From Bugula neritina (Eukaryota; Bryozoa; Gymnolaemata; Cheilostomatida; Bugulidae), in assembly GCA_964035545.1 (NCBI GenBank), contig OZ037768.1, positions 22,472,819-22,532,818 of the forward strand: a stretch of DNA of 60,000 bases, in the 5' to 3' direction. Under the pieces are notes generated by a model that saw nothing but the letters and a program-made list of their open reading frames with translations, was not told the DNA's origin and ran no database searches. The position numbers and the translations under genes were made by a program. Of the stretch, positions 1,194 to 39,373 are shown one piece after another (the stretch's first letter is position 1; every line of letters starts with the position of its first letter).

Positions 1194-3870
1194 TCACATG
1201 ATCGTAGAAATGTATTCATAACACGCCCACGTGACGGCAGCCATGGCAGTTCTACGCAGGATACGGGGCAAGATCCCAGACACAAAACCTGTGAGTCCAC
1301 CAACCTGCAACAGACAGTGGCTTTTACTAGTACACTCAGTGTATATTACATATTATATGACTCACCCTGTATATATGTAGAATAGAAGATATGACTCACC
1401 CTGTATATATGTAGAATAGAAGATATTACTCACCCTGTATATGTGTAGAATAGAAGATATGACAGGTTTTCTCTCTGTCTGCATGTAAGTTTTGACAACG
1501 TCTGCAGGTTGTGTGAGAATGGAGGCTGAAGTTCCGGCAGCCACACCAGAGGCGAGACACAGAGACAGCTTGACAAGTCCCTCATACCGCTCTACAAGTC
1601 AGTATATGGTAGCATCACCTTCTACACATGATGCAGCTTTAGTTTGAGACGTACTGGAGAGCCCGCAGTGAGTGTCCACAGGCTGTACAGAGACTAAGGC
1701 TAGTCTCACATCACATGCACCACAACAAATCATATTTTACCAGAAATGATGCAAAAATAGTATCAAGTAGTTGAACAATGCAGTTTCTGCTACAATGAAG
1801 AACCTTTAGTATTACAAGTAAAAAGTATAAGACCACTGCTCTACAGTTTACTTAACGCTGAGCGGTCAGAGCTCACATACCTGCAGATACTAATTTCTTG
1901 GCTCTGGTATAGAGCAAGAGATAGAGAGAGCTGAACGGTACGTCCCTTACTAAGGTAGCTAGAACTCCGCTATATAACCCTCTGGGACCTTCTGTTTTGT
2001 AGATAGTCATAAGAGCATTCACTACACCACTGTACTTGTATACCCCCGACTACAAATATAACTACACCACTGTACTTGTATACCTCTGGCTACAAATATA
2101 ACTACACCACTGTACTTGTTTACCCCCCCCCCCGACTACAAATATAACTACACCACTGTACTTGTATACCCCCGGCTACACATATAACTACACCACTGTA
2201 CTTGTATACCCCTGACTACAAATATAACTACACCACTGTACTTATACATCACCTTGGCGACTACAAACATAATTACTAACTTATTCATACAACCCTGAAT
2301 ACAAATATAACCACTACACCATTGTAATTATAAACCTCAGCTTTCCAAATACAATAGGTATATCTCAATACCTATGACACACTTATACCCATGAATATCA
2401 TATTCCTTTATCAGCAGTAATGGCTGATTAATTAAAACGACCAAGAACTAAAATGATGAACTAAAAATCCTTTCTGTAACCCACTGACCTCGAGACGTGT
2501 TTTGATGACTGTGAAGGGAAGCAGAGTGATAACAGATAGAGATCGTGCAGTAGCGCCCATGGTTAATATCTGCAGGCTGGTGGGCGTTGGTGAACTAAAA
2601 CAGCCAATAAGATTCATCCATTTAGCCCAGTAGACTAGCTACGCTCCTTCACTATGACATTCTGCATTTACTCAAAACACTTGAAGTGACACACTGATTC
2701 TAGACCCAATGACAGCTTCATGATTGATGTCTATACTATATGACAGACACAGTATTTACCTTAAATTAGACTGCAAAGCTGTGAGAGTACAGAAATACAG
2801 GCCTAGCCCTGGCACACAGCGGAGTAAAGCCTGAAACACATGGCATAAAATGATTAATTGAAGCATTAGGTGGGTTTGTCATATAAACATAGCATTAAAG
2901 TAAGGTATCCTTTCACCCAGTGGAACAGTTATTCTCAGAAAATCCTACAACATGTTAATTTCAGAAGAAAAAGCAACTTTAAAAAACCAGAATACTGCCT
3001 GATAGAGGAATAACCTACGGGAGTGAGTCCCTTCCACAAGGCAAACACACCTTCATTCTTGACGACATTTCGATATATACTGAGTACTCCCGGAGAGCGC
3101 CCTCTATGTGAAAAGAAACACGACAAGTGAGTGAAGATAAGACTTGAGTTATACTAGGGTTGACTCGAGAAGTGAGTGAGCACTAGACTTGAATTGCAGC
3201 AAGTAATAAGTAATAATAAGTAAGTAATACTTGGATTTAAGTTAGATATCAAGAGTCTGAAAACCAGATACTTGGGGATTGTAACAAGGTGAGTTTAATA
3301 TTAAAATCCTGCCTAAAATTACGTAAAATCTTTCTTACAACTTTCTGTTTAATAGGACAATGAATCGTTCGAAGAAAAATTATCAATATTTCATTCTTTT
3401 GATGAACTTAAAATGGCAATTAATATCTGAATCACAATAATATTACTATGCTTATAATGTAAAAGATATACATGAAAGATAACAGAACATCATAACTTTA
3501 TTCCTATGAAAATAACTGTAAAAATCTTGTGAATTAAAATAGCAAAAGTAGTATCAAAATATACCATAATAAAACAGTAGTGTTAAGAAGTAGTGAATAA
3601 CGAAATGTTTGCCTAAACCGGAATTGGCTACACAACAAAGCCAGTTTCTTTAAGAACACATAAAGTACTGAAACGAGGCCAGACTACCAGCATGTTTCAT
3701 ATTAATAACTGACGGTTGGCTTTGAAAGGAAACATGAAAAAATATCCTCCCTACCCTTGCAGGGTCTTGTCCCTCTGTAGACGAGTTTTCACGAGGTCGA
3801 GAGGCTGTAGTACCACCGTAGAACAAGTTCCGCTGAGAGATCCTGCCACAAAGGACTTTATTAGTGGACT
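1194..3870 (-). CDS. SLC25A38: Mitochondrial glycine carrier SLC25A38/Hem25 (N-terminal exon missing)
   Basis: Mitochondrial inner-membrane carrier of the SLC25 family; the SLC25A38/Hem25 branch imports glycine for heme synthesis. Exons on the minus strand: 3755-3870, 3019-3103, 2760-2830, 2489-2576, 1881-2049, 1434-1591, 1194-1304. All phases match and give 265 residues to the TGA. Three carrier repeats are visible: [22 protein letters not shown] and [11 protein letters not shown]. The middle repeat has lost the acidic residue of PX(D/E)XX(K/R), as SLC25A38 proteins do (PITVIK in human). [10 protein letters not shown] and [15 protein letters not shown] also match this subfamily. The family is about 300 residues, so about 30 N-terminal residues are missing. 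The first exon listed is preceded by a pyrimidine-rich tract and TAG acceptor, so a short upstream exon with the ATG should lie between about 3.9 and 6.3 kb; I could not identify it. Two introns carry repeats built from splice junctions. Confidence 0.92.
1359..1461 (-). repeat. 34-bp tandem repeat of a 5' splice site
   Basis: Three donor copies 34 bp apart: the GTGAGT complement sits at 1428-1433 (the functional junction of the carrier exon ending at 1434), 1394-1399 and 1360-1365. Each unit carries the exon end ACATATACAGG followed by GTGAGT. Using an outer copy would add 34 or 68 nt and shift the frame. Confidence 0.85.
2022..2275 (-). repeat. 40-bp tandem repeat of a 3' splice site plus exon start
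   Basis: About six 40-bp units beginning inside the carrier exon 1881-2049. On the minus strand the unit reads TATATTTGTAG, then the exon start TCGGGGGTATACAAG. The first unit holds the functional acceptor (exon start 2049). Later copies keep the TGTAG acceptor and about 28 nt of exon sequence. One copy near 2120-2133 has an expanded C-run, and the last copies are degenerate. Confidence 0.85.
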
Positions 3871-3873
3871 CTA

Positions 3874-4640
3874 CGGAACATAGTGCCAGTTTTGATGGGT
3901 AGCAACAAGGGAGGGGAGGGAATGGATAGCAATATAAGGGGGTAGGGTAGATAACAAAATAAAGGGATAGGGTTCAGTGAACATAAAATTTACTAAAAAA
4001 AATTAGAGATTATGATTTCACTTTCATAGAATGCATCACAATAAAGTCAACCATAAATCAGTGCAATAAATTGAGAATTTGTATGAAAGTTTGCATTTCT
4101 TTGACTGCTCCTTACCATTGCAGTGTCCCCAGTTTGAACACTCATGTCTATAGGTATGTGTATGTTTTCTGTTTGTTCATGCCAGCTGCTCTAAAACATT
4201 ATAATGATTCTATATTATATATCTCAATGTATATCAAGCTATCAACTACATAACCACTAACAAATATTATTGATTTCACAGCTGCAAGTTTGTAAGTTCT
4301 CCGGTATACTTACAGCTAGTGTTTGAAATACTATTACTAATACTAATAGTAAAACTAAAAGTATTCCTATTAGTATTACTATTACTATTAGTGTTAGTAT
4401 TACTATTAGTATTAGTAAATTAGTATCACTATTACATTTACTATTACTATAAGTTAATGTATAACTATAAGTATAGTATTACTACAACTATGTCTATTAC
4501 CCAGTAAATGTAATACTATTAGTTTTACTATTACTATTAGTATTACTATTTACTACCTATTAGAGTATTACTATTAGTATAACTATAACTATAAGTATTA
4601 CTAATGTAGTAAAAAATATTATTAGAGCCATCGAGCAGTA
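3874..4640. other. Intergenic with AT-rich TACTATTAG array
   Basis: There is no gene. From about 4321 to 4616 the sequence is an irregular array of TATTACTATTAG-type units. A related array in the opposite orientation starts near 5600. Confidence 0.5.
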
Positions 4641-5575
4641 CACGTTGCGTCAAGTTGACGGCCCTGAATAACAATATTGTGAATATAGAGACTAGGTCAA
4701 GGTGATTTTTATCGGACTTGCAAGTTAAATCATTCTGGCAATATAATTTAACTAACTCAAAGCTAGGTCAACTAATTTTGATATATTGTGATTGGTTGAT
4801 ACAAGCTGTAATGCTAATTTTATATTAAATTTGTTGAGTTTTATAAAATTTTTGTATGTAAATAATTGGTTGTACTCCAAGACGTCCGTTTTGTGCTCCA
4901 AGACGTCCGTAATATGGATATAAATAGAGTTGTAATTTTTAGTAGCAGTCAGTCGACTGTTGCCTGTTGTAATGTTTATAATTGACTCTTATAAATATAA
5001 TAAATTTTATTCTTTGCGAAATACTCTGCTCTTTGATTAGGTTGCTATTGAGTTGGCAATAGTGGTGGTTAGTTTCTATAGGTTTGTCAATGGTGATTAC
5101 TTGCGCTGCAATTCCTGTTGAATCTCGGTGATTCAAATCCCAGGAATCTGATTTCTGTCACTGTCTCTGACTACAACTGCTGTGATATAAATCGGCGAAC
5201 CATAGCCGTGTCCCTGTCACGCTCCAGCACTGTTACCGAACACCAGAAATCATTTTTTCCACTGTAGTGACTCTCTTGCGTTGCGGAATTCCTGTCGAGT
5301 CTCTGCGATTCGAACATCAGGAATTAGATTTCTGTCACTGTCTCTGACTACAGTTGCTGTGATATAAATCGGCGAACCATAGCCGTGTCCCTATCACACT
5401 CCAGCACTGTTACCGAACACCAGAAATCAATAGTCACTGGAAAATATTAAAATCACATTAGCAAATAATTTGGCAACAAACAGTATTAGATAGTTTAATT
5501 AGTTTTCCGCACAAGGGAATTCTATTCCGGCCCTCATTGTTAAGTGAGATTACTTACCGTCAATAGTGACACCTG
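4640..5575 (+). mobile_element. Probable solo LTR of a retrotransposon
   Basis: The stretch has LTR architecture: a TATA box (TATAAATAG, about 4919), then a possible R region, then AATAAA at 4999-5004. After about 5571 comes TGGTGTCAGACAC, which resembles a primer-binding site for initiator tRNA-Met. Two direct copies of about 180 bp lie inside: 5149-5250 is nearly identical to 5329-5430, sharing GATATAAATCGGCGAACC. No gag-pol reading frame follows. The ends are approximate because no clean target-site duplication was found. Confidence 0.4.
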
Positions 5576-5597
5576 GTGTCAGACACAAATTCACTTC

Positions 5598-5830
5598 ACT
5601 AAGTCTAATAGTAATAGTAATACTAATAGTAGGTAACAGTAAGAGTAATACTAATAGTAATACTAATAGTAATACTAATAGTAATAGTAATACTAAATAG
5701 TAATAGTAATACTAATACTAATAGTAATACAGTAATACTAATAGTAATAGTTATACTTATACTATAGTATTAGTAATACTAATACTAATACTAATAGTAA
5801 TACTTATAGTTAATGTTATAGTAATAAGTA
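5598..5830. repeat. AT-rich TAATACTAATAG array
   Basis: An irregular array of TAATACTAATAGTAAT units. It is the reverse complement in style of the array at 4321-4616, so the two flank the LTR-like segment as long imperfect inverted arrays. Similar short arrays occur at about 6580-6740, 28500-28570, 54300-54490 and 55140-55340. Confidence 0.7.
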
Positions 5831-7117
5831 ATAGCTAAAACCTATAAAAAAAAACACAACTTAAATTTATTCAATTCCGAAGTTGAAACAATTAACATAC
5901 AATATAAAGGCTACGTGATGATTTCAAAAGTCAGCTGCAACGTGTCCAATATCTCCAGGAAGACACACCTTTATTTGCATCATCCCACACTCAGATTGAG
6001 ACGGTACCAATTATAACCTAATTTAGCCATCATGGAATTGTTAGAAGCAGCGCAAATTAGATAATAATCGCGTGCAGGATCTGTAAAAACGTCGTTATTC
6101 TAACCTCAAAGTCGCAACACCAAACTCGATTGCTTCAAACTAATGCGTTTAGTAACTACCGATTTTGTGCTGCTTCAAACGATTCTTAACCATTTATGAT
6201 CATGGCGGAGGTAATGTAGTAGTTCTGAACCAATTAAAACATGAGAGAGAAACCTTGACCGAAGCAGGACTTCATATCAAATAATTCTAATTACAGGTAG
6301 ATTCCCTTTACAAACCCATAAATGTACTGTATAAATGTACTGCAATTAAAAAGGGGTTTATTGACCCTTTTTGGACTACTTCAAGGACGTTTTTTTCCTG
6401 GTCAACTGCATTAGATATATTATTAATAATAATGTAATTATATTGATCAATTATTATCATGTTAAATTTAATAATAATAAATAGTATTACTAATCCTCGG
6501 TTTAATACTAATAGTATAAAGTTAGATTTATCTTAATCATACATTTTATTATAAAAGTAGTTTATTTAATTTTATTTTTTATCACTATCAGTATGAGTAT
6601 GAGTATCAGTAAAACTGAAAGTAAAAGTAAAACTAATAGTAAAAGTAAATGTAATCAATTACTATTAGTATTACTGCATTAGTATTAGTATTACTAATAG
6701 TAATAGTAATACTGTATAAGTGTATTACTAATAATATTGCTAAATACTATGTTCTATATTTTACAGGCATAGCTGTTTTTTGCCATGCCTTTATCACAGT
6801 TTATGGCTTATGATTTTAGTTAATAAATGATGCCGCCAGGCTAATGTTTACCCTGTAGGCTGTAGTGCTTATATAATTATACTTATAGTTCTATTTCTAC
6901 AACTAGTTTAAATATGCATTCTCATTCCTCATACTGATGCAAACACTTTTCCATGCTTCAACTTCATGCTTTTATTATTGTGATTATTAGATCTAATATA
7001 ATGAGTATAATATAAGAGTATGCATTTTAGTAACGCTTTGTTTTAAAGAAACCTGCCTCATAACATTGTTGCAGATATTTTACCTTCTTCTGTTTGTCCT
7101 AAGCTGACTCTACCACT
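5831..7117. other. Intergenic, probable divergent promoter region
   Basis: It lies between the minus-strand carrier gene and the plus-strand seven-pass gene. The carrier's first exon may be here or further left. No confident coding segment was found. Another TACTATTAG-type array lies at about 6580-6740. Confidence 0.4.
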
Positions 7118-10100
7118 ATGCCAACACCAAGGGTGAATTTTGCTGACTTGAGAGCGTGAGTATATGCATTAGGATGCTACTAAATCGTCAAGTTGTAAAC
7201 TTATTCAATCTATTTGAGATTAATTAATCTTGCAAAAAAGGATTTTAATTTTAGTTTGAAGTATCTTTAATTTTTATTTTGCAAAAACATTTTGGAATTT
7301 TTGTGCAGTTATCCGATAAATAAATGTGTATATATAGTTATTTAGTAATAAACATAGCAATTCAAAGTTGTTTGTTTTAATAAGTCACAAAAATCACTTA
7401 ATTCACTACCATAGTGTTCAGTTATAGAGAAACTTGACTATTTTAAATTATTTGGCAGAGATAATGGATCAGCCCTAAACTCCAGTTTACTACACTCTCA
7501 CCATTACAAACAGTCCGGTCACCTACCGAACGCCTTTTACGTCACACTCTGCGCCATATTTCAAGTGGAGACAAATCCTGCTGACAGGTATGACTCAAGT
7601 GTAACTTTTTACTATTTAAATGGCTATTTATTGACTAAGTTTATGTTTCTGTATGTTACCAAAAATGTTAATAACATTGTATAGCTGTATGCTACTAGAA
7701 TTGTATAGCTGTATGCTACTAACAATGTGCAATGATAATCTAATTTAGTAATAATATAATATAATAATACCAATAATCTAATATAGTATTACTACCACCC
7801 GCGCAGGACCACTGCGATGAAAGGTGACCAAAGGTGGCCATAATGTAATAATATCAATGATCACTATGTTGATCATTGATATTATTACTAAGTTCATAAT
7901 AATATAGTGCAACAACAATATAATGTAGTAAAAGTATAATCTATACACTGCAAAATTTTGTAGAGCTGTTATTGGCAGAGCAGTGTTTATCTTAACAGTG
8001 CTGATATCATTGGGCTACCTGGTAGCAGACATAACTTTTACTATATGGGATATCAAGAGTGGACATACTAAACAGACTGTTACTACAGGCCTGTTCAGCA
8101 TATTCATTTCACTCATCTGGTAGGTGTATCAGCATATTATTCATTTCACTCATATGGTAGGTGTATCAGCATATTCATTTCACTCATCTGGTAGGTGTAT
8201 CAGCGTATTATTCATTTCACTCATATGGTAGGTGTATCAGCATATTATTCATTTCACTCATATGGTAGGTGTATCAGCGTATTATTCATTTCACTCATAT
8301 GGTAGGTGTATCAGTGTATTATTCATTTCACTCATCTGGTAGGCGTATCAGCGTATTATTCATTTCACTCATATGGTAGGTGTATCAGCGTATTATTCAT
8401 TTCACTCATATGGTAGGTGTATCAGCGTATTATTCATTTCCCTCATCTGGTAGGTGTATTAGTGTATTATTCATTTCACTTGTATGGTCTCTGTTTTTGC
8501 AACATATTTTATTCAGAATTATTTTGTCTTGCTATAAGACAAACTCGGTACTGGTTAAAACATAATTTTCTTTTCTTTGGACTTGGCCTTTCATTAATTT
8601 AAACTGAAAACCTTGCCTTTTGGGTGCTCTCTACACACATACGCGAACAGACACACACATTTATTTGTTTTACCTATTTCGTATTGTTGAGAGTTGTCTT
8701 ATATTGGCAGGGTCACTCTGGGTATGTATGCTAATAGATTGGGAAGACGACTGCTAAAAAGCTCATCAGTTGTAAACGACTTGAGACTTCATTCCAAGAC
8801 AGTATTTAAAGTGCCGGCTGCAGTGCTTGTAACTCTATTAGCTCTAGTCGTTGTTACTATCTCTAACTACAGGTGTGTACCTGTGGCAACTGTGAGAAAT
8901 TACAGTAGTCACTACAGTAGCTACAGTAGCTATAGTAAATTTACTAACTAAATACATGATTTTTACCTCCTGCTTGTTGTGTTTGGTTTTTGTGTCGCAA
9001 CATACACTTTAGAAGTTTAGACCATAAAATGTTGCATTATGTTATATATTCTGTAATGTATAACTGCGATGATATGTTTTTTAGAAATAACACATCATAC
9101 GTATTTTAAAAAGATTATCAATGACAATTCAAAATAAACCATCGATTTATTATAATGGAATAATTCCTATATATAAGTTCTTCTGCACTAACTGTTGCAG
9201 TGCATTCAAATTCTACTGGGACTCCAAGGCGTGTGTCGAAGTTTCATTGGACGGATCTCTCTGTAAAGTCATATTTATCCTCCGTATTTGCCAGACCTTC
9301 TTCCTGTTGCTTTTCAATTGCTGCGTCGCCACAGCCGTCCTCTCCATATGCAGAACTCATACTATTGGTAAGTTTTAGATCTTAGGCTATTAGTTAATTA
9401 GTTATATATTATAGTATGTGTTACATGAATTGTCTTCCCTTTTCTTAGGAGTTCGCAGGTTCCTAAGAGCTCTAGAGAATGATGGGCAAACTTGTGAGTT
9501 GAAACACCGTAAGAGGTTTATGAAGGCACAGTTTTCCGCTTCCCACAATCTCAGTGGTAAGTACTTAATACTTTAGTAATTACTGCTAGTAGTAAGTAGT
9601 ATGTAGTTACTAGTAGTCAGCAGTATATAGTCACTAGTGGTTAGTAGTATATAGTTACTAGTAGTTAGTAGTACAGTTACTAGTAGTTAGTAGTATATAG
9701 TCACTAGTAGTTAGTAGTAAATTCTCAGGTTACAAATGTTGGTGTTCACACAGACGGTATAACCATACTAAATAAAAATTTAGGATTTATCTCTATACTC
9801 TTATACATACGCTAATTCAAACCGATGCAATGCATGTACATGATTGTTTAACTTTTACACTTTCATTTTTTGAGAATAGATGTTTTAGGCACTAGTAGAT
9901 ATGGGGTTGTCCTATCTTCTACAAAACGGTCACATGATCAACAAGTGTTTGTGCTTTAGAACTTTATCTGCCAGAACGATGTTATCACGAAGACTCTGAC
10001 TCAGATACTGGTAATGAGGAGGGGGATAACACCCCCCTACTTAGTTACGTGCAGAATCCAGAATCAGGGGCTATAGCCAGCAGCTCTAATGACACATCTA

Positions 10101-11697
10101 TTCAGTATTCTGGACCCAGGTCTACAGTAAGTGTAATCCATCATTATATTGTTATATATTCACTATATATTCACGTAGGTTGAGAGTTGTCTTCTTTTAA
10201 ATGAGTTTATAGAATACTCGTTTCTAAACTTTGCTTATCATAATAAACTGATGTGTTTGCAGGTAACACCCACTCCTGATGGTTTAATCCTCAGTAAAGA
10301 TGATATACTCTTCTCTTACTGGAAGTTGGCTGTGAGTTGGAAAAAGTGTAGCTATTGATAAAGCAGACAACTTCAATATGTATTTCTTATAGTGCTAGTT
10401 GCATCTGGAATAATATATTGTATTGTAAAGGATTTTTGTTTTTAGTTTGGAGGGGGATCAAAGCCTACCTCCTGATTTAGCTATTGTGTTGTGTAACTTA
10501 GGCTATCACTGTAGTTATTATTTAGCAGAAGCATAAATTCACACAGCACCTGATTGTTATGTTAATTGTTAAGTGACCACTCACTTACAACAGTTGAGTT
10601 TACTGGTAATAATCTTATTTTTAGTTCAAATCATGCAAGCATAAATGATAAGGTTGATTCATGTTTTGGTCATGTGATCTGTTACAGAGTCGTATGCGAA
10701 TGACGTCACGCGTATTACAAAGATGGATGGCTTCGTGGATAGCATTTACGATTCTGTGGCTTTTGAAGTGGATCATCACCTGGTTGCATCACCCGTCTTC
10801 GTACCTGGAGATTGCTCAGTTCGTCTTACCTCTACTCATGACGCTCATTCTTTGCACCGCTTATGGAGAGGCCAATGGCGAAGCGGCAAAGATAATATCG
10901 GTAAGTGGAGCTAACTTCTAAATTCCAATGTCCTTGTATGTATTTGTAAAATGAAAGTATCAACATTAATGCATTATTTAGACTTTTAGTAAACGGATAT
11001 TTATAATTATTTTTACTTCTCGTTTCATTTGTAAAACAATTTTTAGCTATGTGTTAGCATTTTTGTATTGTCGCTTTTATTATAGCATAATTAGTACAAT
11101 GTAATGTGCATAATTACATGTGCATAAGAGAAAGCGAAGTAATGAAATTTATTTTTGCAAATTAAATAAAATAGCAGTTCGATAGTTTATCCAATTAGTG
11201 AAGTAAGGTTCTGTGCTCATCTTTAAACCTCCTCGCCATTTTGGTTGTAATATATTTTGTCCTAGGTATTATATTATTTTATTTAATAACAGTATATATT
11301 ATATTATTTTATTTTGTTAATAGTGTATATTATATTATTTTATTTAATAATAGTATATATTATATTATTTTATTTATTAATAGTGTATATTATATTATTT
11401 TATTTAATAATAATAATATATATTATATTATTTTATTTATTAATAGTATATATTATATTATTTTATTTAATAATAGTATATATTATATTGTTTTATTGCT
11501 TCACTTCATAGAGTATAACTCCACTACAAGACAGGCTGGATGTGATCAGAGCTCTACCCAACATCAATATTGGTATGACTTTATACAGCAAGCCCATAGA
11601 GTACAGCGGCATCTTAGCTGTAGTGGCAGCCATTGGCTTAGCCTTGTCTTCTAGAATGATCCTTGATGAGTTTCTACCTCCCAGCCCGCACAGTTAA
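7118..11697 (+). CDS. Predicted seven-transmembrane protein, candidate gustatory-receptor-like
   Basis: Ten exons: 7118-7155, 7459-7587, 7964-8119, 8711-8872, 9201-9367, 9449-9556, 9960-10126, 10263-10331, 10688-10900, 11512-11697. All phases join, giving 464 residues from ATG to TAA. Hydrophobic segments, by eye: about 62-80, 95-114, 142-159, 185-212, 345-365, 375-395 and 436-454. The N-terminus (about 60 residues) is polar, and a long acidic linker (HEDSDSDTGNEEGD) sits between segments 4 and 5. There is no signal peptide. No rhodopsin-type DRY or NPxxY motif is visible. The layout (polar N-terminus, seven passes, long loop between TM4 and TM5, short C-terminus) resembles the insect-type gustatory receptor-like superfamily, but I see no diagnostic motif, so the family is inference. 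Intron 3 contains tandem copies of its own donor site. Confidence 0.8.
7845..7888. repeat. Short palindrome in intron 2
   Basis: An inverted repeat of about 19 bp per arm (TAATAATATCAATGATCA and its complement) with a loop of about 6 nt, in intron 2 of the seven-pass gene. Confidence 0.7.
8095..8480 (+). repeat. About 37-bp tandem repeat of exon 3 end plus donor
   Basis: About ten units reading CATTTCACTCATCTG, then GTAGGTGTATCAG. The first is the true end of exon 3 (8119, GTAGGT donor). The others repeat about 20 nt of coding sequence and the donor through intron 3. Confidence 0.88.
9560..9722 (+). repeat. TAGTAGT-rich minisatellite after exon 6 donor
   Basis: Irregular units (TACTAGTAGTTAGTAGTATA) begin a few bases past the exon 6 donor at 9557. 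They contain GTAAGT-like and GTATGT-like steps near the junction, but the exon edge is not clearly repeated. Confidence 0.6.
11250..11492 (+). repeat. AT-rich minisatellite in intron 9
   Basis: About 30-bp units of ATTATATTATTTTATTTAAT with TAATAG steps, ending about 20 nt before the exon 10 acceptor at 11512. Open frames through it are low-complexity artefacts. Confidence 0.75.
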
Positions 11698-12990
11698 CTT
11701 TATTACTCACAACCCTCAGTTTACACAATCAAGATTTATTCTCCCTTTGTACTCTGTCATTCCTATAACTTCATTACATTCTTTCCCCTGGAATTCCATA
11801 CTCCCCAAGGTGGTTTTATTGGTGCTAAATAACTATTTCCTGATGATTATTCTCTTTCTTCCGAATATATATTGTATTATTATTTTATTTCAGTGTATTT
11901 TATACCATTTATAATGATAAATATTTTTGTATATGCAATATTATAAATTCCTACAATGCTTTTTTTCTTTTTAGAACTAGCACACATTATTTAGGCGCTT
12001 TTATGTCTCAAATTGGGTGCTGTAAATTCACAAATCAACTTTTTGTTAGATGCAATAAGCCATGCAATAATTAATTTATGTTATTTTATAGTAACACACA
12101 ATATTATAATATATTGATTTTTGTTGAAGAACAATAATAAATATTGAAACCACTCCTAATTATTTTAGACAAATCAATGGTCAAAATAAAAGAAAATATT
12201 TTCAATGATCCCATTATGTTTAATTAGAACTCTTGTACTTTCAATAGGCCTATATTATCTGAATACCATCACTTCTCTGTTACTGGCTCTAACCTACACA
12301 CATGCAGTTGGGTGAAAATCAAGGTTTTGGAATGCTAGATATTTTTCAACAATTTAAATTTGCAAGCATTGGTTTCACAAAGTCATTTTAGCATCTTGAC
12401 CTAAAAAATGTAATCTTTAACATATAAAATTTTGATGGCAATATGCCAAAGAGTTATATAATATGATTATTGTGTTATAAGCATCAGGTGGACATAACTA
12501 ACAATGGAGCCATCTAAACTCTCACAGATATTTCAAGGTATCTAGAATTTAGGGATCTGAAACTTCAATGCTCAGAGAATAATCTAAAATCTAGCCAGCC
12601 GAACACGTTAGTGTTAGTAAAAAGAGCACATTGAGGCGCAGTAATTTTTCAATTTTTCTAATTATTGCTATTTTGGGCTCGGGTTTTTGCACAGACATAT
12701 TAACTTTTGTTGCTACCTTTTTTCTTCTAAAGCACAGGCTCTTTATAATTCAGAAAATGATCTAGCTATATAGTCGAGTATCAATAATTAGTGTCAGGGT
12801 TGGTGGTTCAGAGGTTTGTTTGATGCTCTAATATAGCACACACTGTGCCCTGCTGGTGAATGCAACTCAACAGGACCATGGATGATGCCAAAATCATCTT
12901 CAACTATGTTGAACAATAGAATAACCAGTCGTTTTGTCAGGATAGAGTAAGGTAAAACTTTTGACCATTGGTTATTCACACTATAAACAA
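11698..12990. other. 3' flank and intergenic
   Basis: Probable 3' UTR of the seven-pass gene, then AT-rich sequence. Open frames in 12794-13054 have no family signal. A plus-strand segment near 12885-12955 could encode a short basic N-terminus for the next gene, but its splice phase does not join cleanly. Confidence 0.4.
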
Positions 12991-12999
12991 GGCTGTTGA

Positions 13000-13496
13000 T
13001 AGATTTCATTATTTGCAACATCTCATGTTGTAGTAACCAATAAAGATGGAACAAAAAACATTACAAAGTTAGTTGTCTTTGGAACAATTGGTTTAGCCGC
13101 AACTGCAGGTGCTTCATATGCTATCTATGTTTCACTTGGTATGCCGTTTCACCAGAACCGATGCAAATTTGTTTGGTAAGCGCTAAGACGGTCAGTGTAT
13201 CGTATATGCTGTGCGCAGAAAAACTGGATTTTACTTGTAAATTGCTGAAATATTTGTCTAACTTCCTTTTCTTTGATCTTTAATGTAACAATTCTTTAGT
13301 AACAATTCTAACGATATTTTGTTTATTTAGGAGAAAAGCTATGAGGACTTTCAGAACTTTCAGCCAGACATTTGTGCAGCCGATTCTCCAGTCAAGGGCC
13401 AAGGATTTTCAAAGAGTTGCCGATTTTATCGAGGAAAAATTTAGTATCCAAGACGGCTTCCTGATGAGTCACCCAATCATTATCAACATACATTAA
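13000..13496 (+). CDS. Small single-pass membrane protein (5' end unresolved)
   Basis: Two joined coding segments: about 13000-13175 and 13331-13496 (TAA). The junction is phase-matched (TG|GTAAGC, then TTTATTTAG|G). The protein has a hydrophobic stretch, KLVVFGTIGLAATAGASYA, then a basic amphipathic tail (RKAMRTFRTFSQTF) and an acidic end. I do not recognise the family. The size and basic tail would suit a small organelle-membrane subunit, but that is only inference. The frame is closed just upstream of 13000, so the start codon must be in an upstream exon. It lies tail to tail with SMC1. Confidence 0.45.
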
Positions 13497-14128
13497 CATT
13501 ACTCATACATAGTATTTACCTGTATTAGGGATTTATTATATGCTGGCATATTAGCAGTTAATTATTACAATAAATATATTCTCTTAATTTCAGACTGGTA
13601 ATTTTTGTACTTTTCCACATCAACAGAAATCTCAAAATTTACTGACCAATATGTTTTGCACTCTATAAAATAATATAATATTCTAAAATACAGGACAACA
13701 AAAGTGTCCAGAAGGTTGTCAGTTAATAATGCATCACCTTTCCGTATGTATCAGCATAGAATCTACTCTTTTGATGCACATACATTTAGTATGCTTCTTG
13801 TGGCACTAAACATTATTTTTAAGCTGCAGAAGAGCTTTAAACAAGCTTTTGTCTGCAGTCTCTATTGTATCTCTCAAACGGAAGTGATCTAAAACACTAG
13901 ACTTTCGCTAAACAAATATTTTTGAAGTAAAATTTTTTCCACGGAGTTGAGTTTCAAATAGAAGAATAGCGACAAATAGTTCAAGAAGTTCTATTACGAG
14001 CAGTTACACATTTTATTAACAATGTATATGAAACTAAGAAATGTAAACATGAAACAAAATAAAAATGATGCAAAAAAATTGATGCAGAAGAATGAAACGC
14101 TACTAAAGTATGAAACAGTCCAACATGG
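13497..14128. other. Shared 3' flank of small gene and SMC1
   Basis: There is no gene. On the minus strand, AATAAA occurs at 14012-14017, about 115 nt past the SMC1 stop codon, and is the likely SMC1 polyadenylation signal. Confidence 0.5.
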
Positions 14129-17100
14129 CTACCGGTGTCGTGTGGGTGTCTTGACCGGGCTCTTCCTGTTGTTCTCCAATGTGTTATCTGGGTACGGAGT
14201 TAGATCCAGAGTGACCACCCGACTCTCCACACAGTCTCCTTCCTGAACGTGGAGATAGTGAATAATTAGGTCATGGGAGTGTGAGTAATTAGGTCGTAGA
14301 AATGTGAAAAATTAAGTCAAATGTAGTGTAAAGAGTGAAATATATAACAAATGCTATAAGGCAACTGGACATGGTGAATGGCATGCTATATTGATAAATT
14401 GTTATTCTAGAACCAATGTAGAACCTGTATATTTATTTATATTATTTTATTAGTGTATCTCATCATCTAACATACGTGATTAACCATAAATGGTTAGGAT
14501 ACTAACTCTAGGATATATAGTTAGGATACTAACCCTAGGATATATATGGTAATGATACTAACCCTAGGATATATATGGTTAGGATACTAACCCTGGGGTA
14601 TATAGTAAGGATACTAACCCTGGAATATATAGTAAGAATACTAACCCTGGGGTATATAGTAAGGATATATATGGTAAGGATACTAACCCTAGGATATATA
14701 TATAGTAAGGATACTAACCCTAGGATATATATAGTAAGGATACTAACCCTAGGATATATGGTAAGGATACTAACCCTGGGGTAGACGCCGATCAAAGCAT
14801 CAACATGAGAGTAGAATTCTTCTTTCAGAGAAATTACTATCAGCTGGAAGTTATTTTCCGCCTCTTCTTTCATAAATGCAGCAACCTACAGGTAAGTATA
14901 GAGTAACCTACAGGTAAGTACAGAGTAAGTATGTAGAGCAACCTACAAGTAATTAGAGTAACATACAAGTAAGTACGGAGTAAGTACAGAGTAAGTACAT
15001 AGTAACCTACAGGTAAGTACAGAGTAACCGACAGGTAAGTACAGAGTAAGTATGTAGAGTAGTTAGAGTAACCTACAGGTAAGTACAGAGTAAGTATAGT
15101 AACCTACAGGTAAGTACAGAGTAACCTACAGAGTAAGTACAGAGTAAGTACAGAGTAAGTACAGAGTAACCTACAGGTAAGTACATAGTAACCTACAGGT
15201 AAGTACAGAGTAAGTACATAGTAAGTACAGAGTAAGTACAGAGTAAGTACAGCATACCTTGCCGATGTTAGTGTTGTCCAGGGCAGCATCAACTTCATCC
15301 AGGACAAAGAAGGGAGCAGGTTGGAAGCTACAAGACAGTATATACAGTATACAGTATACAGTTATACACTATACAGTTATACACTGTATACAGTATATAC
15401 AGTGTACAGGTATACACTATACAGTATACACTATACAGTATATACACTATACAGTATACAGATATACAGTGTACAGTTATACAGTATACAGATATACACT
15501 ATACAGTATATACACTATACAGTATACTGTATATACACTATACAGATATACAGTATACTGTATATACACTATACAGATATACAGTATACAGATATACACT
15601 ATACAGATATACAGTATACAGATATACACTATACATATATACACTATACAGATACACACTATACAGTATACTGTATATATACTATACAGATATACAGTAT
15701 ACAGATATACACTATACAGTATACTGTATATACACTATACAGATATACAGTATACAGATATACACTATACAGTATACACTATACAGATACACACTATACA
15801 GTATACTGTATATACACTATACAGATATACAGTATACAGATATACACTATACAGATATACACTATACAGATATACTCTATACAGTATATACTCTATAGTC
15901 CATACAGTATATACACACCTGTGCATGGCGAAGAGAAGTGCCAAAGCGGCCACAGTTTTCTCGCCACCAGAGAGGTTGTCCATTGGTCTGAACCTCTTCC
16001 CTGGCGCCACGCAGTTATAGTTGATACCCTCCAGGTACGGCTCCTCTACGTTCTCAGGGCCGAGGAAGGCCTGGGCACTGTTGTTTCTGGTGAGACTCTA
16101 GACAGAAGAGACAGAGAATAGAGTGTCCAGAGAGTAGTATAATACATAGTAGTGGAGACAAAGGTAGGGCAACCCTTGAATATACATAATCTATTGAATT
16201 AATACAGAGAGGGAACAGCTGTGGTCTAGCGATTAGAGCATTGGCTTAGTAAACACCAAGTCATGGGTTTGAACCCCAGTAAAGGCCATTGGTGATGTTA
16301 GGAAGAGCATCCAGTCATAATTGCTCCTGTGTCACATCCAAATAAGTCATCAGCCCGCTTTAAAACCATTTTCATCAGAGGTTCTCACAGGGATAGTGAC
16401 TATAAACTTCCGTGAGTTTTTATTTAATTAATATACAGATTATATAAGCCAACCTTTCACCCAAGTGAGTTTATAACACGCAGATATATAGACAAACAAT
16501 ACGAAACTTATGAATCAAGAGAAAACACGCTACATGCTCTTACTTTGTAAATGTCGTCGATTCGATCTGCCACTTTCTCGAAGCACTTGTTGAACTTGTC
16601 AAACCTCTCTCGTCTGATCTTCTCAAATATCTGTTTAGTCTTTCTGGCGGATCTCTTGGCTCTCTCAAACTCATCTGCTGTTTCTACGAACTTTTCCTGT
16701 ACTGTTTCCAGTCTACAATACAGTATGTGTACATTATTACACACTCTACTACAGTACGTGTACATTATTACAAACTCTACTACAGTACGTGTACATTATT
16801 ACACACTCTACTACAGTATGTGTACATTGTTACACACTCTACTACAGTATGTGTACATTGTTACACAGGCTAATACAGTACGTGTACATTTACTCCACAC
16901 AGTATGCGCACACTGCCAACACAACTCTGTGAGAGACTCACTTTTCCAGAGCTCTGAGATTGGGTGCAGCTATACGCTGTATGGTAGACTCCAACTCTGA
17001 TATAGCTCTGATCAGTTGCTCCTCCATACGTTGTACTTCTTCACTTCCGTCCAACTAATAACATGACGCAAATGTTATACATTACTTTACGTTACTCTAC

Positions 17101-20100
17101 ATATAATACATTAAAATACGTTACTATACTGCACTACTTATATAATATAATATTATGAATCATAATAATCGCATACATTTTAATAACGGTGTAGTGTGTA
17201 CATACTAATACTTTTATATTTGTGTAAAATATTCCATAGTTTATTACTACTGTAAACTGCAATGACAACTAATTCCATACCTCAGCTAGATCTGAGTCGA
17301 GCCCAGTATAGTTTATTTGTATCTTGGCTTCCTTAGCATAGAGCAGTTTGGCCTCCTGACTAGAGCGATTGTCCACAGCCGGAGAGTCGGTGTCCTGTGA
17401 TGAGAGCTCCATGTCAAGGTCGTTGAGGGTTCCGCCTTTGGTAGGCACACGAATATCATCCATCTACATATGTTATGTAATACCAGTGACTATATTATAC
17501 ACTAGTGACTAGTGTACAGTTACTATATGACTAGTGTATAGTTACTATATGACTAGTGTATAGTTACTATATGACTAGCGTATAGTTACTATATGACTAG
17601 CGTATAGTTACTATATGACTAGTGTATAGTTACTATATGACTAGTGTATAGTTACTATACGACTAGTGTATAGTTACTATATGACTAGTGTATAGTTACT
17701 ATATGACTAGTGTATAGTTACTATATGACTAGTGTATAGTTACTATACGACTAGTGTATAGTTACTATATGACTAGTGTATAGCTACTGTATGACTAGTG
17801 TATAGTTACTATATGACTAGTGTATAGTTACTATACGACTAGTGTATAGTTACTATATGACTAGTGTATAGTTACTATATGACTAGTGTATAGTACGTAC
17901 CTTGCACTGCTGGAGTAAACTATGTCTGTCGCTACGCTTCTGTTCCAGCCGATTCTCCGTGCCGGTTATCGTCTTCTGGATCACATTGATCTCTTTAAAC
18001 TGTGCGCTCAACCTCTTCTTTACTTCACTGATCTCTAGCTCCACGTGCTCAAACTGAGCCTTTAGAGTCGTCTTTCTTGTGTTTAGCTCTTCTTTGGAAT
18101 TCAAATCCTCTTCTATACTCTACAAGATTAACAGATATTTTATTGTAATCCGCCAGGAGACCTCAGGATTGATTTGAAATACAATTTCTGGCACATAGAC
18201 ATGTTCCCATGAGCACTAACTCTAAATTACACCATGCATCTAATTAAATAGTGACAAAATGATTTGACTATTTGTGTAGGGAATGTATTTATAGTAACTC
18301 ACTGCTAAAAAGAATTGTGCTAAATTGATTATTTTAAAATGCATAACAAATGACACAATTACATACAAAACAATCAAAGTATACTAAAATTATATTAAGA
18401 ATCACTCTGCTATATTTAACATCACTGTGCCATATTTAGTATCAACAAGTTATATTTAGCACCACTCTGCTACATTTAGAATCACTGTGCTATATTTAGA
18501 ATCACTGTGCTATATTTAGCATTACTGTGCTATATTTAGAAACACTGTGCTATATTTAGCATTACTATGCTATATTTAGAAACACAACAGATCTAACAAC
18601 ATAATACACCCGTCACCTCCATCTGTCTGGTTTCCTCCACTTTCAGTTTCATCAGTTCTTCCTCATCGTCAGCGACAGCCTGCGTCCACTTGTTCACCTT
18701 TGTCTTTGTGTCCTTTGACCTTTCGAACTCCAGCTGCTCCACCAGGCGATTCTTCTGGTTGTCCATCTCCAGCTTCTTCTTCTCTCTGGCCTGTTGTTCC
18801 TGGAGCTCCCTTTCTTCATATACTCTGTATTGTATACATTAGATAGTATATACTCTGTATTGTATATTAGATAGTATATACTCTGTATTGTATATTAGAT
18901 AGTATATACTCTGTATTGTATGCATTAGATAGTATATACTCTGTATTGTATGCATTAGATAGTATATACTCTGTATTGTATATTAGATAGTATATACTCT
19001 GTATTGTATATTAGATAGTATATAGTCTGTATAGTATATTAGATAGTATATACTCTGTATTATACATTAGATAGTATATACTCTGTATTGTATATTAGAT
19101 AGTATATACTCTGTATTGTATATTAGATAGTATATACTCTGTACTGTATATTAGATAGTATATACTCTGTATTGTATATTAGATAGTATATACTCTGTAT
19201 TGTATATTAGATAGTATATACTCTGTACTGTATATTAGATAGTATATACTCTGTATTGTATATTAGATAGTATATACTCTGTATTGTATATTAGATAGTA
19301 TATACTCTGTATTGTATGCATTAGATAGTATATACTCTGTATTGTATGCATTAGATAGTATATACTCTGTATTGTATATTAGATAGTATATACTCTGTAT
19401 TGTATATTAGATAGTATATACTCTGTATTGTATATTAGATAGTATATACTCTGTATTGTATATTAGATAGTATATACTCTGTATTGTATATTAGGTAGTA
19501 TATACTCTGCATTGTATATTAGATAGTATATACTCTGTATTGTATATTAGGTAGTATATACTCTGCATTGTATATTAGGTAGTATATACTCTGTATTATA
19601 TATTAGATAGTATATACTCTGTATTATACATTAGATAGTATATACTCTGTATTGTATATTAGATAGTATATACTCTGTATTGTATATTAGATAGTATATA
19701 CTCTGTATTGTATGCATTAGATAGTATATACTCTGTATTGTATATTAGATAGTATATACTCTGTATTGTATATTAGATAGTATATACTCTGTATTGTATA
19801 TTAGATAGTATATACTCTGTATTGTATATAGACACTACTACTATATACTACCTGTTATTACATAATATATACATACTGTATAATCTACCTGATATTGTCA
19901 ACTCCTATTTGGGTACAGAAGTCTGCAAAGATTCTGTCCTCCACTGTATTCATCTTCTCGCGAACTTCTAAGATCTTATCCTGTCGCTGCTCCATTTTCA
20001 TTTCCATTTCTCTCATCGCAGGCTGAAAAGGAAGTACACTTGTAAATTGGCAGCAGTATCACCTACAGCAACGAGTTCTCCATAACGTAATGACTGAAGC

Positions 20101-23100
20101 AGATGGAATAAGTAACCAGATATACGACTCACAGCAAACTTGTCCAGCTGCTTCTTATAGTTGCTGATATCTTGATCGTTCTTGGTTATCACTTTGTTCC
20201 TCTACAAGATCATAGCCCAGGAATAAGATGCTGCAGGTTACACACAATATACTAGCGTAAGCATCCAACAGCATTTCCTAGTTCTAAAGTGGCACAGTTA
20301 TCGCCATGCTATATATAAACATCTTGCATATGAAATAATGCCAGCTGGTGTGTGAATGTAGCCCGGAATCCTCACCGTGTTATCCCTGTCCTGTATGGAG
20401 TACTTGAGCCGCGTCTCGTTCCCCTTGATCTGAGACCGGATTGTGTTGAGCTCAGACTCCTTTCTCTTTGCCTTCTGCACTTCCTTCAACTCCTCCGTCA
20501 GCTGATTTCTCTTCTGCTTCAGTTTGTTCACCTGCTTTTCATCCCACCTTCTAGCCTTAGCTTTCAAGTCACTGTTGGGGGACGCAACAACAAGCTTCCA
20601 TGGTTTGGTTGAGAATAAATATAACTAAAGTACTAGGATTTGTCTTCTCTGCTAGTCACAGTAAAATAGTTAAAATTGCTAGTCTTCTTCCCTAAATAAC
20701 TGCTACACAAGTGAAATTTTGCAATCACTATATATAAAATAAACTAGTTATAACCACTAGTCATGAGCTATGCAGACTATACACACTACAGTCAACACCC
20801 ACCTGGCACCACCAGAGATAATTCCAGACTTCTGGAAGAGAGTTCCATCGAGGGCCACGGCTTTGTGTCTCTGATCCATGTTGTAAGCAACCTACAAAAA
20901 CAATGAGTGATACAGCTGAGAGAAATGGTGGAAATGTGGAGCCACCACATGTCACTACCTGCGAGCACCTGCCTTTACCTGTGAGCACCTGCTCCTACCT
21001 ACCAGCACCTGCACCCACCTGTCTAGCGTCGTCAACAGTCTCGCAGACCAACGCGTTTCCACACGCATACAGCAGAGCTTTCTTGATAACCGGAGGGTCG
21101 TATCTGATGACATCAAACACCAGCTTCACATTGGCCGGCTGCCGTATCTCCCTGTACACAAACAATACTGAGATGATGAGGGTGTAGAGGGGTATTAGTA
21201 AGAGCAGAGAGAATGTGAGGCTAGGGGTTATATCACCCCCTACTCATTAGAAGTATCACTTAATGTTGAGATTTATTTTGGATTCAATATGTTTATAAAA
21301 AAGTTTCCACATATAATAAATGACCAGACTGAGAGTTTAGTGTAGATAACCATTTATTTCGATGATAATTTGAAATAGTAAAATTTCTTCATAACGCCTG
21401 AATGAGAAGAAAACTATAACAGTTTTAATAAATTTCAGGAAGGTGCAAGTTTCAACAGTTGGACCAATCTAAGGCGACGTCACAAATACCTTAGCTGCTC
21501 CGTGATTGGCTTAGTCTTGAGGTTGTCCAGAGGTAAGAAGGTCTCTGGTTCTATCCTCTGCTCCTTCATGTACTGGATACAGTCCTGGGCCGTCCTCACA
21601 CTGTCACAGACTATGGCGTCCATGTCCTTGCCCATCACCTTGGTCACAGCCAGGTGGTAGCGCTTGTGGGTGGGTACGCACATGTCCAGCAGCCTGCCAT
21701 GCTGCAAGAACCATCAAAGATAGAGGAGCCAATGATAGGTTTTTATGACACCTTGTAAATACTTGGAATGAGCTTCTATTTTAAGTAATCCAACAGAGTT
21801 CCGACTATTTTCCACTTTTGTTCATGTCAACTTATTATAGCCAGTATTTACACTGAATTTCACAACATGTTTTCATGTCTTTGATATGTAATAAATCAAT
21901 CAATAAAGATGAAACAGTCCTGGCTTACGCTGTGTGTAATACAATGAGATCTAGCCTACACTGTGTGTAATACAATGAGATCTAGTGTAGTGTAATGCAA
22001 TGAGATCTAGTGTAGTGTAATACAATGAGATCTAGTGTAGTGTAATGCAATGAGATCTAGTGTAGTGTAATGCAATGAGATCTAGTGTAGTGTAATGCAA
22101 TGAGAAAGAAATTTTAAACATTTTCCAGAAGAAAGGAAACGCCGATACGAAAACATACCACTCCGGGATACAGTCTCTTCAGATTGTCAATCAGCTCGGC
22201 TTTTCGCTGAGCTCTCGACGACTCATTCTTATCAACACGGGCCTCCCCCAGCTGTCCCACAACATCTTCCAGCTCCCTGTTGATGGAATTTAGTCTATCC
22301 TGAGCCCCTTCTACCTCCACTGACAAAGTTGCTTCGGTTGATCTTTGCTCAGCAATTGTCTTCTCGCTGGTCCTGCATATGGAATATCATACAATGATTA
22401 GCCTGCGTACTTTATTAACATACATAATAAAATAATAAAGTTGATAAACAACAAGTTTTTTATAAAAATTTAAGTAGTTTCTGCCACAAATTGGTTGTGT
22501 AGAGGTCATTGCATCAAATGGTGAGGCACACAGAGTACATCTCAGCTCAGAATAGTAACGCTTCAAGGGGAGATAAATCAAAGGAGCTCAAACAGACTTC
22601 AGTAGTCTGCGATCTCCTCATAATTGGCTATATTATCATCACAGCTGACAGATGTGTGACACCACATGTCACAGTATGTCACCACATGTCACAGTATGAC
22701 ACCACATGTCACAGTATGTCACCATATGCCACAGTATGCCACAGCATGCCACAGTATGTCACCACTTGCCACAGTATGTCACCACATGTCACAGTATGTC
22801 ACCACATGTCACAGTATGACACCACATGTCACAGTATGTCACCACATGTCACAGTATGTCACCACATGTCACAGTATGACACCATATGCCACAGTATGAC
22901 ACCACATGTCACAGTATGTCACCACATGCCACAGTATGCTGCAGTTATCTACACAGCTAGACGCGTTGCAAAGCAATGCATATCTCTTACGCTATGTACT
23001 CCGTCAGCTTTTCTAGACGGCGGCCATTATCTTCTTTCTCGTTTTCTTTCTGTCTAATCTTAGCCATCAATTCATTGCGCATTCGGTCTTCATTGTCCAG

Positions 23101-35609: not shown

Positions 35610-36948
35610 TTAGTTGACTTGAGTTTGGCATATAATGTCGGGAACTTTGCTGCAAGAACTGCCTCCTGGTGGCCTACCCGGAGAACCTGATTGACCAAAT
35701 ATTGACTTGTCACACTGTGTATCTGCTCGTAGACTTGGGAAATCTCTGATATTCTTACAGAGAATCTGATATACTGCTCTGCAAGTAAAAGGTCCCCCTT
35801 GGTGTTTGCCCCTCCTATAGCAACCCACATCTCCAAGCTGAAACATATTAAACATATAACAGGTTATAGAATTGGAAATCGGAAAAAACTATTTATGTTG
35901 AATGTTATATTATAGTGATGGTAAGACAGCCTGCGTTAAAAAAACTATAACACTACTTGTTTTACCTAATGTTGTGTTGACCAAAAGTTAAACTGAAATG
36001 CTTTCAGAATCTTTTAAGTTATAAGTTATTGCAACTAAATATTTATATTTTTACCTAAAGTGATTTACTGCGTTAGCTCAACAATTACATAGATGAATAT
36101 ACTTGTTTAAATAAAATGGAGTTTTTTACATCATCTACAAACTTAGCTTTACAAACAGATGAAGGTCATGAATCTTATACCTTTACCTGAAACACAGGCA
36201 ATCATTCTTTAAATAAGCTTTTTAATTACGTCTGCATAAAACTTACTGAAGTTTGAAATAATTAGTAAAAAAGATTATCATGAAAAATGAGAAAAAGTTG
36301 TTGCACAATTTTTGTTTTCCACTTTCCTATAAAAGTAGTTGTAAACAAAACATTTTACAAAAAATATTGTCAATAAGTTTTTAACACAAATCTTTGCAAT
36401 TTAGCAGTTTTCTACGCAACATAATGCATCAGTACACGTCTGCTACTTGAACAAGGCAAAGCGGAGATAGGCAAGGATTTATTAGTACATGTATTCACTA
36501 CAAACCTCCTCAACTATGGTCCCTGCGGGAGCTCCTTTTGGCCCAGGAGGTCCCGCCTGTCTCCGATATCTCTTTAGATCTGGGTGCTTTGCAGGATTTG
36601 AGGAGCTGGGAGTTGGTGGTCCTTTCAGTGTAAGAGTAGGCTTGGCATCCTTTAGCTGTACAACAGAGTTCAAACTTGATAACATTAAACCCTTTGTTTC
36701 ACTTTTATCATGCTGAAGAGCTCCATGCAACTTACATATAATAGATGTTACATTACCTCTGTAGCCTATATCATGTAACAAATTCAACTTGCCTTGCAGT
36801 CAGCCTTCTCGTGACATTCTTTGATGGCATCAGCATTAACCTCCCTCAATTGTAGTGCAGCTATAATAACACAGAAACACAAAACTGTAACACTGAGAAA
36901 CTTTAGAAGAGAATAGGTACGTCTGCTCAGTATGTCCTTCACATCCAT
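35610..36948 (-). CDS. Small secreted collagen-like protein, copy A
   Basis: Three exons: 36793-36948, 36506-36655, 35610-35837; 177 residues. The first intron has a GC donor (TGCAAG|GCAAGT). Residues 1-34 are a basic start and hydrophobic core (FLSVTVLCFCVIIAALQL), a signal peptide or signal anchor. Then come a Cys pair, a Pro/Ser-rich linker, a furin-type site RYRR at about 80-83, a short Gly-X-Y run (GPPGPKGAPAG), a Cys-containing domain (CYRRGKHQGGPFTCRAVYQ), and a second short Gly-rich run near the C-terminus. The layout (type II anchor or signal, RXRR, minimal triple helix, Cys domain) suggests a processed extracellular collagen-like peptide. I do not recognise a named family. Compared with copy B, the C-terminal Gly run has lost 9 nt in frame. 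The open frame is intact. Confidence 0.75.
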
Positions 36949-39268: not shown

Positions 39269-39373
39269 CTACAAACACATCTTGAGCACTATCCAAGTGA
39301 CTGACAAATTTTATAAGTTAAATGAACATTATAAAGTAGTGTTTTGTACAATTCATAGGGTAGTTACTGTTAT

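What the first reader, a model, noticed from the sequence alone, without database searches (positions are those of the whole stretch)
1359..19840. Minisatellites built from splice junctions in several unrelated genes
In at least six introns of three genes (SLC25A38, seven-pass gene, SMC1) the repeat unit contains the intron's own functional splice site plus 8-28 nt of exon, and the array starts exactly at the real junction. Both donors and acceptors are affected, and unit lengths differ (28, 34, 37, 40 bp), so it is not one mobile repeat spreading. It looks like a recurrent local process that duplicates exon-intron boundaries outward into the intron, leaving ladders of decoy splice sites. Tandem duplication of splice-site sequence is known as an intron-gain model; expansion of existing junctions into minisatellites at this frequency is, as far as I know, not described.
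Basis: partly seen in the sequence, partly recalled or inferred. Interest (0 to 1): 0.88.

Follow-up and report, generated by a model that had tools for sequence, protein, structure and literature searches.

The report
Splice-junction minisatellites ("mirages") in introns
Short repeats in this animal's introns often contain copies of the gene's own splice site; this is real, but the same kind of structure was described in lancelets years ago, and it occurs about as often as chance duplication in small introns would produce.

Summary
I built gene models for SMC1 (27 exons), SLC25A38 (8), the seven-pass gene (10) and, from another contig, SMC4 (25): 66 introns, all GT-AG, open frames. In the three window genes seven arrays contain the exon-proximal splice site plus 3-30 nt of exon, donors and acceptors alike. 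SMC4 and SMC2 add five, plus one in a truncated intron, so it is not local to this window. Of 74 junction-like decoys with a testable frame, 71 would give a premature stop or frameshift; 3 would not.

It is not a new kind. Tandem repeats spanning exon-intron boundaries were named "mirages" in lancelets (PMC3087553, passages). Nor is a junction-seeking process needed: 12 of 44 arrays reach an exon, against 8.8-15.9 expected if arrays fall anywhere in these short introns with 10-30 nt of exon overlap tolerated. Two things stay unexplained: arrays lean to the donor end of introns, and they fill 20-67% of intron bases in some genes, 0-10% in others. The host has a bilaterian-type mitochondrial code and is otherwise unidentified. 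Reading: local tandem duplication filtered by selection.

The parts
1355..1463 (-). SLC25A38 intron 7 donor array, 34 bp x 3.2; exon 7 ends at 1434, so 30 nt of exon lie in the array
   Evidence: TRF; model; offset; two decoy donors score like the real one, both give a premature stop or frameshift
2021..2243 (-). SLC25A38 intron 5 acceptor array, 40 bp x 5.4; exon 6 ends at 2049 on this side, 29 nt of exon in the array
   Evidence: TRF; model; four decoy acceptors, all premature stop/frameshift
8101..8488 (+). Seven-pass gene intron 3 donor array, 37 bp x 10.6; exon 3 ends at 8119, 19 nt of exon in the array
   Evidence: TRF; model; nine decoy donors, all premature stop/frameshift
14496..14777 (-). 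SMC1 intron 26 donor array (two overlapping TRF rows, 27 and 29 bp); exon 26 ends at 14775, 3 nt of exon in the array
   Evidence: TRF; model; of three decoy donors only one would damage the message
14887..15252 (-). SMC1 intron 25: array (TRF period 11) fills the intron, from 5 nt after the donor to 1 nt before the exon; units carry copies of the acceptor
   Evidence: eight acceptor-like decoys
18818..19829 (-). SMC1 intron 18 acceptor array, 28 bp x 35.7; exon 19 is 18617-18824, 7 nt of exon in the array
   Evidence: TRF; 35 decoy acceptors, all premature stop/frameshift
20955..21021 (-). SMC1 intron 14 donor array, 20 bp x 3.3; exon ends at 21019, 3 nt of exon in the array
   Evidence: TRF; no decoy passed the similarity threshold
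23803..23873 (-). SMC1 intron 8 acceptor array, 31 bp x 2.4; exon 9 is 23690-23806, 4 nt of exon in the array
   Evidence: TRF; two decoys, both premature stop/frameshift
17506..17894 (-). SMC1 intron 20 array, 22 bp x 17.7, starts 6 nt after the donor junction (near, not across)
23142..23266 (-). SMC1 intron 10 array, 21 bp x 6, starts 4 nt after the donor junction
16719..16890 (-). SMC1 intron 22 array, 31 bp x 5.5, ends 6 nt before the acceptor junction

Best explanation
These are 'mirage'-type minisatellites. A local tandem duplication (unit 20-40 bp in the window cases; replication slippage or unequal exchange) sometimes happens to straddle an exon-intron boundary. It survives because the spliceosome keeps using the copy next to the exon, so the mRNA does not change; the extra copies lie in the intron and can expand freely. 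Shown: arrays cross the junctions of the gene models, the exon-proximal site keeps the frame, most decoys would not, the units are largely unrelated, and the number of junction-crossing arrays fits neutral placement in short introns. Inferred: the slippage or exchange mechanism, the use of exon-proximal sites in RNA, and selection as the filter.
For: Gene models with all 66 introns GT-AG and open frames. SMC1 aligns to PDB chain 7w1m_A (SMC1A) without gaps at the array-bearing junctions of introns 8, 14 and 18; the printout stops near residue 950, so introns 25 and 26 were not seen. The SMC2 N-terminal part aligns to chain 9f5w_A without gaps over 1-238. SMC4 matches 9f5w_B over 17-1240, alignment not printed. 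So for those junctions the exon part is ancestral coding sequence and the copies went outward. A gene finder trained without the gene recovers 52 of 52 SMC1 and 45 of 48 SMC4 junctions. Neutral-placement nulls. 71 of 74 decoys with a testable frame would damage the message. Arrays cover 1.9% of exon and 36% of intron bases in the three window genes.
Against: Arrays are not uniform inside introns: 14 of 29 lie in the first fifth of the free space (p 6e-4); with arrays in the last 25 nt set aside, 12 of 21 (p 2e-4) (looked for after the fact). They are uneven between genes: 42% of SMC1, 33% of SMC4, 44-67% of the SMC2 pieces, but 0% of the SMC3 piece and 0-10% of two ABCB genes. Pure neutral slippage predicts neither. 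Three decoys (two in SMC1 intron 26, one in SMC4 intron 7) would keep the frame, and 17 SMC2 decoys were not tested for it. The gene finder did badly on SLC25A38 (6 of 14) and the seven-pass gene (5 of 18) when left out. No RNA was seen.
Confidence: 0.7

Rival explanations
1. A junction-directed mutational process (for example linked to transcription, R-loops or the change of composition at exon ends) makes duplications preferentially at splice junctions, above all near the donor.
For: Donor-end bias of arrays inside introns; seven donor-facing array edges at 0-9 nt against 2.6-3.7 expected; introns of the three window genes have 36% array coverage, the rest of the 110 kb 5%.
Against: No excess of junction-crossing arrays at realistic tolerances. 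Units of near-donor arrays that do not cross the junction carry donor motifs about as much in sense (p 0.017) as in antisense (p 0.029). In 24 further introns known only from the gene finder, 8 arrays occur, none reaching an exon.
Confidence: 0.16
2. Intron gain by tandem duplication (Rogers model): some of these introns were born from the array, donor and acceptor being two copies of one exonic AGGT.
For: In a few introns the array fills nearly the whole intron (SMC1 i25, SMC4 i11 and i18, one SMC2 intron). The lancelet globin paper proposes this route (PMC3087553, passages).
Against: In 11 of the 12 exon-reaching arrays the far edge lies 14 nt or more from the opposite junction. Intron ages could not be tested, and degenerate copies were not searched for.
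Confidence: 0.06
3. Assembly artefact: falsely repeated or collapsed sequence.
For: Not tested against reads.
Against: Several arrays are only 2-6 copies and under 230 bp; copies differ from one another; the same kind of structure occurs on C4 and C7.
Confidence: 0.03

Closest known systems
Mirages of lancelets (Adh3, globins Gb6/Gb9, troponin C, PGBD5; PMC3087553 and PMC3902484, passages seen; the 2002 Adh3 paper not held)
   Same: Minisatellite-like tandem repeats spanning exon-intron boundaries, 5' and 3' boundaries, several unrelated genes, many but not all units keep AG/GT, said not to disturb splicing
   Different: An unidentified animal whose mitochondrial gene order does not fit a lancelet (recalled); window units 20-40 bp, like Adh3 (10-72) and unlike the globins (150-160); allele and somatic instability not testable here
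Human minisatellites at exon-intron boundaries of segmental-duplication genes (PMC2812944, passages seen)
   Same: About 30 bp units, some at exon-intron boundaries
   Different: There the repeats are reported to create novel or alternative introns; here the exon is unchanged and expansion is outward
[quoted passage not shown]
   Same: Tandem duplication that copies splice-site sequence
   Different: Here existing introns are enlarged; no new intron is shown

Membership tests
Mirage minisatellites | Tandem repeat spans an exon-intron boundary | tested here: met
   12 of 44 arrays in 83 introns, plus one in a truncated intron left out of the count
Mirage minisatellites | Both 5' and 3' boundaries affected | tested here: met
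   7 donors and 5 acceptors among the 12
Mirage minisatellites | Unit length 10-72 bp (as in Adh3) and differing between introns | tested here: met
   20-40 bp in the seven window arrays (the 40 bp row of SLC25A38 intron 5)
Mirage minisatellites | Many but not all units keep AG/GT | tested here: met
   0 to 35 junction-like decoys in each of 13 arrays examined
Mirage minisatellites | mRNA spliced normally | not testable with these tools
   Only reading-frame evidence
Mirage minisatellites | Allelic and somatic length instability | not testable with these tools
   One assembly, no reads
Intron gain by tandem duplication | Both splice sites are copies of one exonic proto-splice site | tested here: inconclusive
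   By array edges, 11 of 12 have the far edge 14 nt or more from the opposite junction, SMC4 i11 within 8 nt; degenerate copies not searched for

The most novel reading that the evidence does not exclude
In this lineage a mutational process tied to transcription or to the 5' ends of introns seeds minisatellites in introns of particular genes (cohesin and condensin SMC genes among them, perhaps because they are expressed in the germ line), so that splice junctions are copied again and again and introns grow from their donor ends.
Probability: 0.15. Interest if true: 0.62.

Novelty: new member of a known kind. Interest (0 to 1): 0.36.

Why it matters
It extends junction-spanning minisatellites, which in the library I could search are named as such only for lancelets, to another animal, and supplies a placement null by which they need no special targeting. 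It also offers natural test cases of splice-site choice: up to 35 near-identical acceptors or nine donors in a row, of which the exon-proximal one keeps the frame.

Tried and rejected
One mobile repeat: rejected, units largely unrelated. A link between the SMC1 28 bp array and the satellite at the start of C1 and in C225 (77-79% identity): the satellite unit is a different AT-rich 26-mer, so I treat the match as composition; not tested further. The first gene-finder runs over-predicted tiny exons or linked distant genes; I used them only to propose exons, then fixed these by frame, GT-AG and homology. SLC25A38 and the seven-pass gene rest on frame, GT-AG, for the former the carrier domain, and my recall of human SLC25A38; leave-one-out recovery was 6 of 14 and 5 of 18. 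Extending array edges beyond TRF moved five edges by 1-10 nt and changed no conclusion. Organism: in COX1 of contig C295, read against PDB chain 7o37_a, 13 AGA and 1 AGG codons stand at Ser in 6 cases, at Arg in none (others Thr, Ala, Gly, Pro, Val); ATA at Met in 15 of 21; TGA at Trp in 9 of 9. That is the code of most invertebrate bilaterians; glass and some calcareous sponges are said to read AGR as Ser too (recalled). The gene order nad6-cox1-atp6 (genes named by eye, atp6 also) does not fit the lancelet order as I recall it. Left out of the counts: the SMC2 donor array in a truncated intron (L012 reverse strand 3194-3247), an array in a cut intron of L015, and arrays outside modelled introns. 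SMC2 and ABCB arrays were entered by hand into from the TRF rows. An earthworm paper (PMC12783039, passages) has intronic minisatellites, not said to span junctions in the passages I saw.
Full report
WHAT IS THERE. The window lies on contig C4 of a 215.8 Mb assembly. I assembled gene models: SMC1 (minus strand, 27 exons, 1248 aa), SLC25A38 (minus, 8 exons, 281 aa), an unnamed multi-pass protein (plus, 10 exons, 459 aa, no Pfam match at 0.001) and SMC4 on contig C7 (25 exons, 1254 aa). All 66 introns are GT-AG and the frames are open. SMC1 matches PDB chain 7w1m_A (SMC1A) over residues 3-1232, SMC4 matches 9f5w_B (SMC4) over 17-1240. A small gene finder trained on the other genes recovers 52 of 52 SMC1 junctions and 45 of 48 SMC4 junctions, but only 6 of 14 and 5 of 18 for the two smaller genes.

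ARRAYS AND JUNCTIONS. With TRF (period 10 or more, score 50 or more, overlapping rows merged) 34 of 66 introns hold 38 arrays; 9 arrays reach at least 1 exon nt, 5 at donors and 4 at acceptors. Seven of the nine are in the three window genes, two in SMC4 (intron 7 donor, 2 nt; intron 11 acceptor, 15 nt). SMC2 (two 3 kb loci, partial models) adds three in complete introns (acceptor 10 nt, donor 5 nt, donor 1 nt) and one donor in a truncated intron where 20 exon nt plus the donor are present twice. The SMC3 piece (4 introns) has no array; two ABCB genes (7 introns) have two arrays, none at a junction. Total: 83 introns, 44 arrays, 12 exon-reaching. A further 24 introns predicted by the gene finder alone hold 8 arrays in 5 introns, none exon-reaching.

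IS IT MORE THAN CHANCE. I placed each array at random in its own intron, allowing it to overhang into the exon by up to m nt, since such a duplication leaves the mRNA unchanged if the exon-proximal site is used. Expected exon-reaching arrays: 5.7, 8.8, 11.1, 13.0, 15.9 for m = 5, 10, 15, 20, 30; observed 12; P of at least 12: 0.003, 0.12, 0.42, 0.71, 0.94. With m set by unit length the expectation is 12.9. Restricting to arrays with 60 nt or more of free space: 6 of 30 against 2.7 (m 10, P 0.04), 4.8 (m 20, P 0.34), 6.5 (m 30, P 0.67). The observed overhangs run from 1 to 30 nt, six above 5, so the larger m are the fair ones. Junction-crossing arrays are then about as common as neutral placement predicts, because the introns are short (medians 245-366 nt in the four full genes) and the arrays long.

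WHAT NEUTRALITY DOES NOT EXPLAIN. Arrays inside introns lean to the donor end: 14 of 29 in the first fifth (p 6e-4), and 12 of 21 when those within 25 nt of the acceptor are set aside (p 2e-4) (only arrays with at least 40 nt of room). This was found after looking and needs an independent set; in the 8 arrays I see no such lean. Array coverage is 42% of SMC1 intron bases, 33% SMC4, 26% seven-pass gene, 20% SLC25A38, 44-67% in the SMC2 pieces, but 0% in the SMC3 piece and 0-10% in ABCB; 5% in the rest of the 110 kb around the window and 4% in 50 kb of C1. Units of arrays that do not cross a junction show no sense-specific splice-motif content.

HOW IT PROBABLY WORKS. Where I could see the alignment, the exon part of the arrays matches SMC1A (introns 8, 14, 18) and SMC2 without gaps, so the exon is the source and copies went outward. 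The exon-proximal site keeps the frame in every model. Of 74 junction-like decoys with a testable frame, 71 give a frameshift or premature stop; 3 do not, and 17 SMC2 decoys were not tested. Many decoys score as well as the real site (for example 35 of 35 in SMC1 intron 18 within 1 unit or better). Choice of the exon-proximal site fits exon definition, in which the sites flanking a short exon are paired (recalled, not tested). Duplication by slippage or unequal exchange is inferred.

COMPARISON. [quoted passage not shown] a later paper adds troponin C and PGBD5 (PMC3902484, passage). The original Adh3 paper is not held. Human minisatellites at exon-intron boundaries are also in print (PMC2812944, passages). 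My nine searches (listings) pointed to no further animal with mirages, in an open-licence library only; most listed papers were not opened.

HOST. COX1 on contig C295, with a second copy on the large contig C6, reads TGA as Trp, AGR never at Arg positions and most often at Ser, and ATA at Met in 15 of 21 positions of a PDB COX1 chain: an invertebrate bilaterian-type code.

VERDICT. Real, recurrent, already known as a kind, and at the frequency expected from neutral placement. The donor-end bias and the gene-to-gene unevenness are the parts worth a genome-wide test.

Noticed in passing
small contigs C11-C290 of G000: Many of the kinase matches listed on small contigs read through TAA and TAG, as in ciliates with reassigned stops: the assembly seems to contain a ciliate cobiont.
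   Followed up: no
G000:C6:11172832-11175412 and C6:6348261-6348860: Copies of mitochondrial cox1 and atp6 (first place) and atp6 (second place) inside a large contig: nuclear insertions of mitochondrial DNA, or a misassembly.
   Followed up: no
G000:C1:1-45140 and C225 (L003, L006, L008): Long arrays of a 26 bp AT-rich satellite at the start of C1 and in C225, perhaps subtelomeric.
   Followed up: partly
window 36500-45700, minus strand: Duplicated exon blocks encoding near-identical peptides (e.g. TTQQLDFNESTLDCRPSTAPNSRRGRD twice in the predicted translation), in a stretch with few minisatellites.
   Followed up: no
window 7118-11697, plus strand: The seven-pass gene (459 aa) has no Pfam match.
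   Followed up: partly
SMC1, SMC2, SMC4 versus SMC3 and ABCB introns: Strong difference in minisatellite coverage between genes; the array-poor genes sampled lie on C1, the array-rich ones on C4 and C7.
   Followed up: partly
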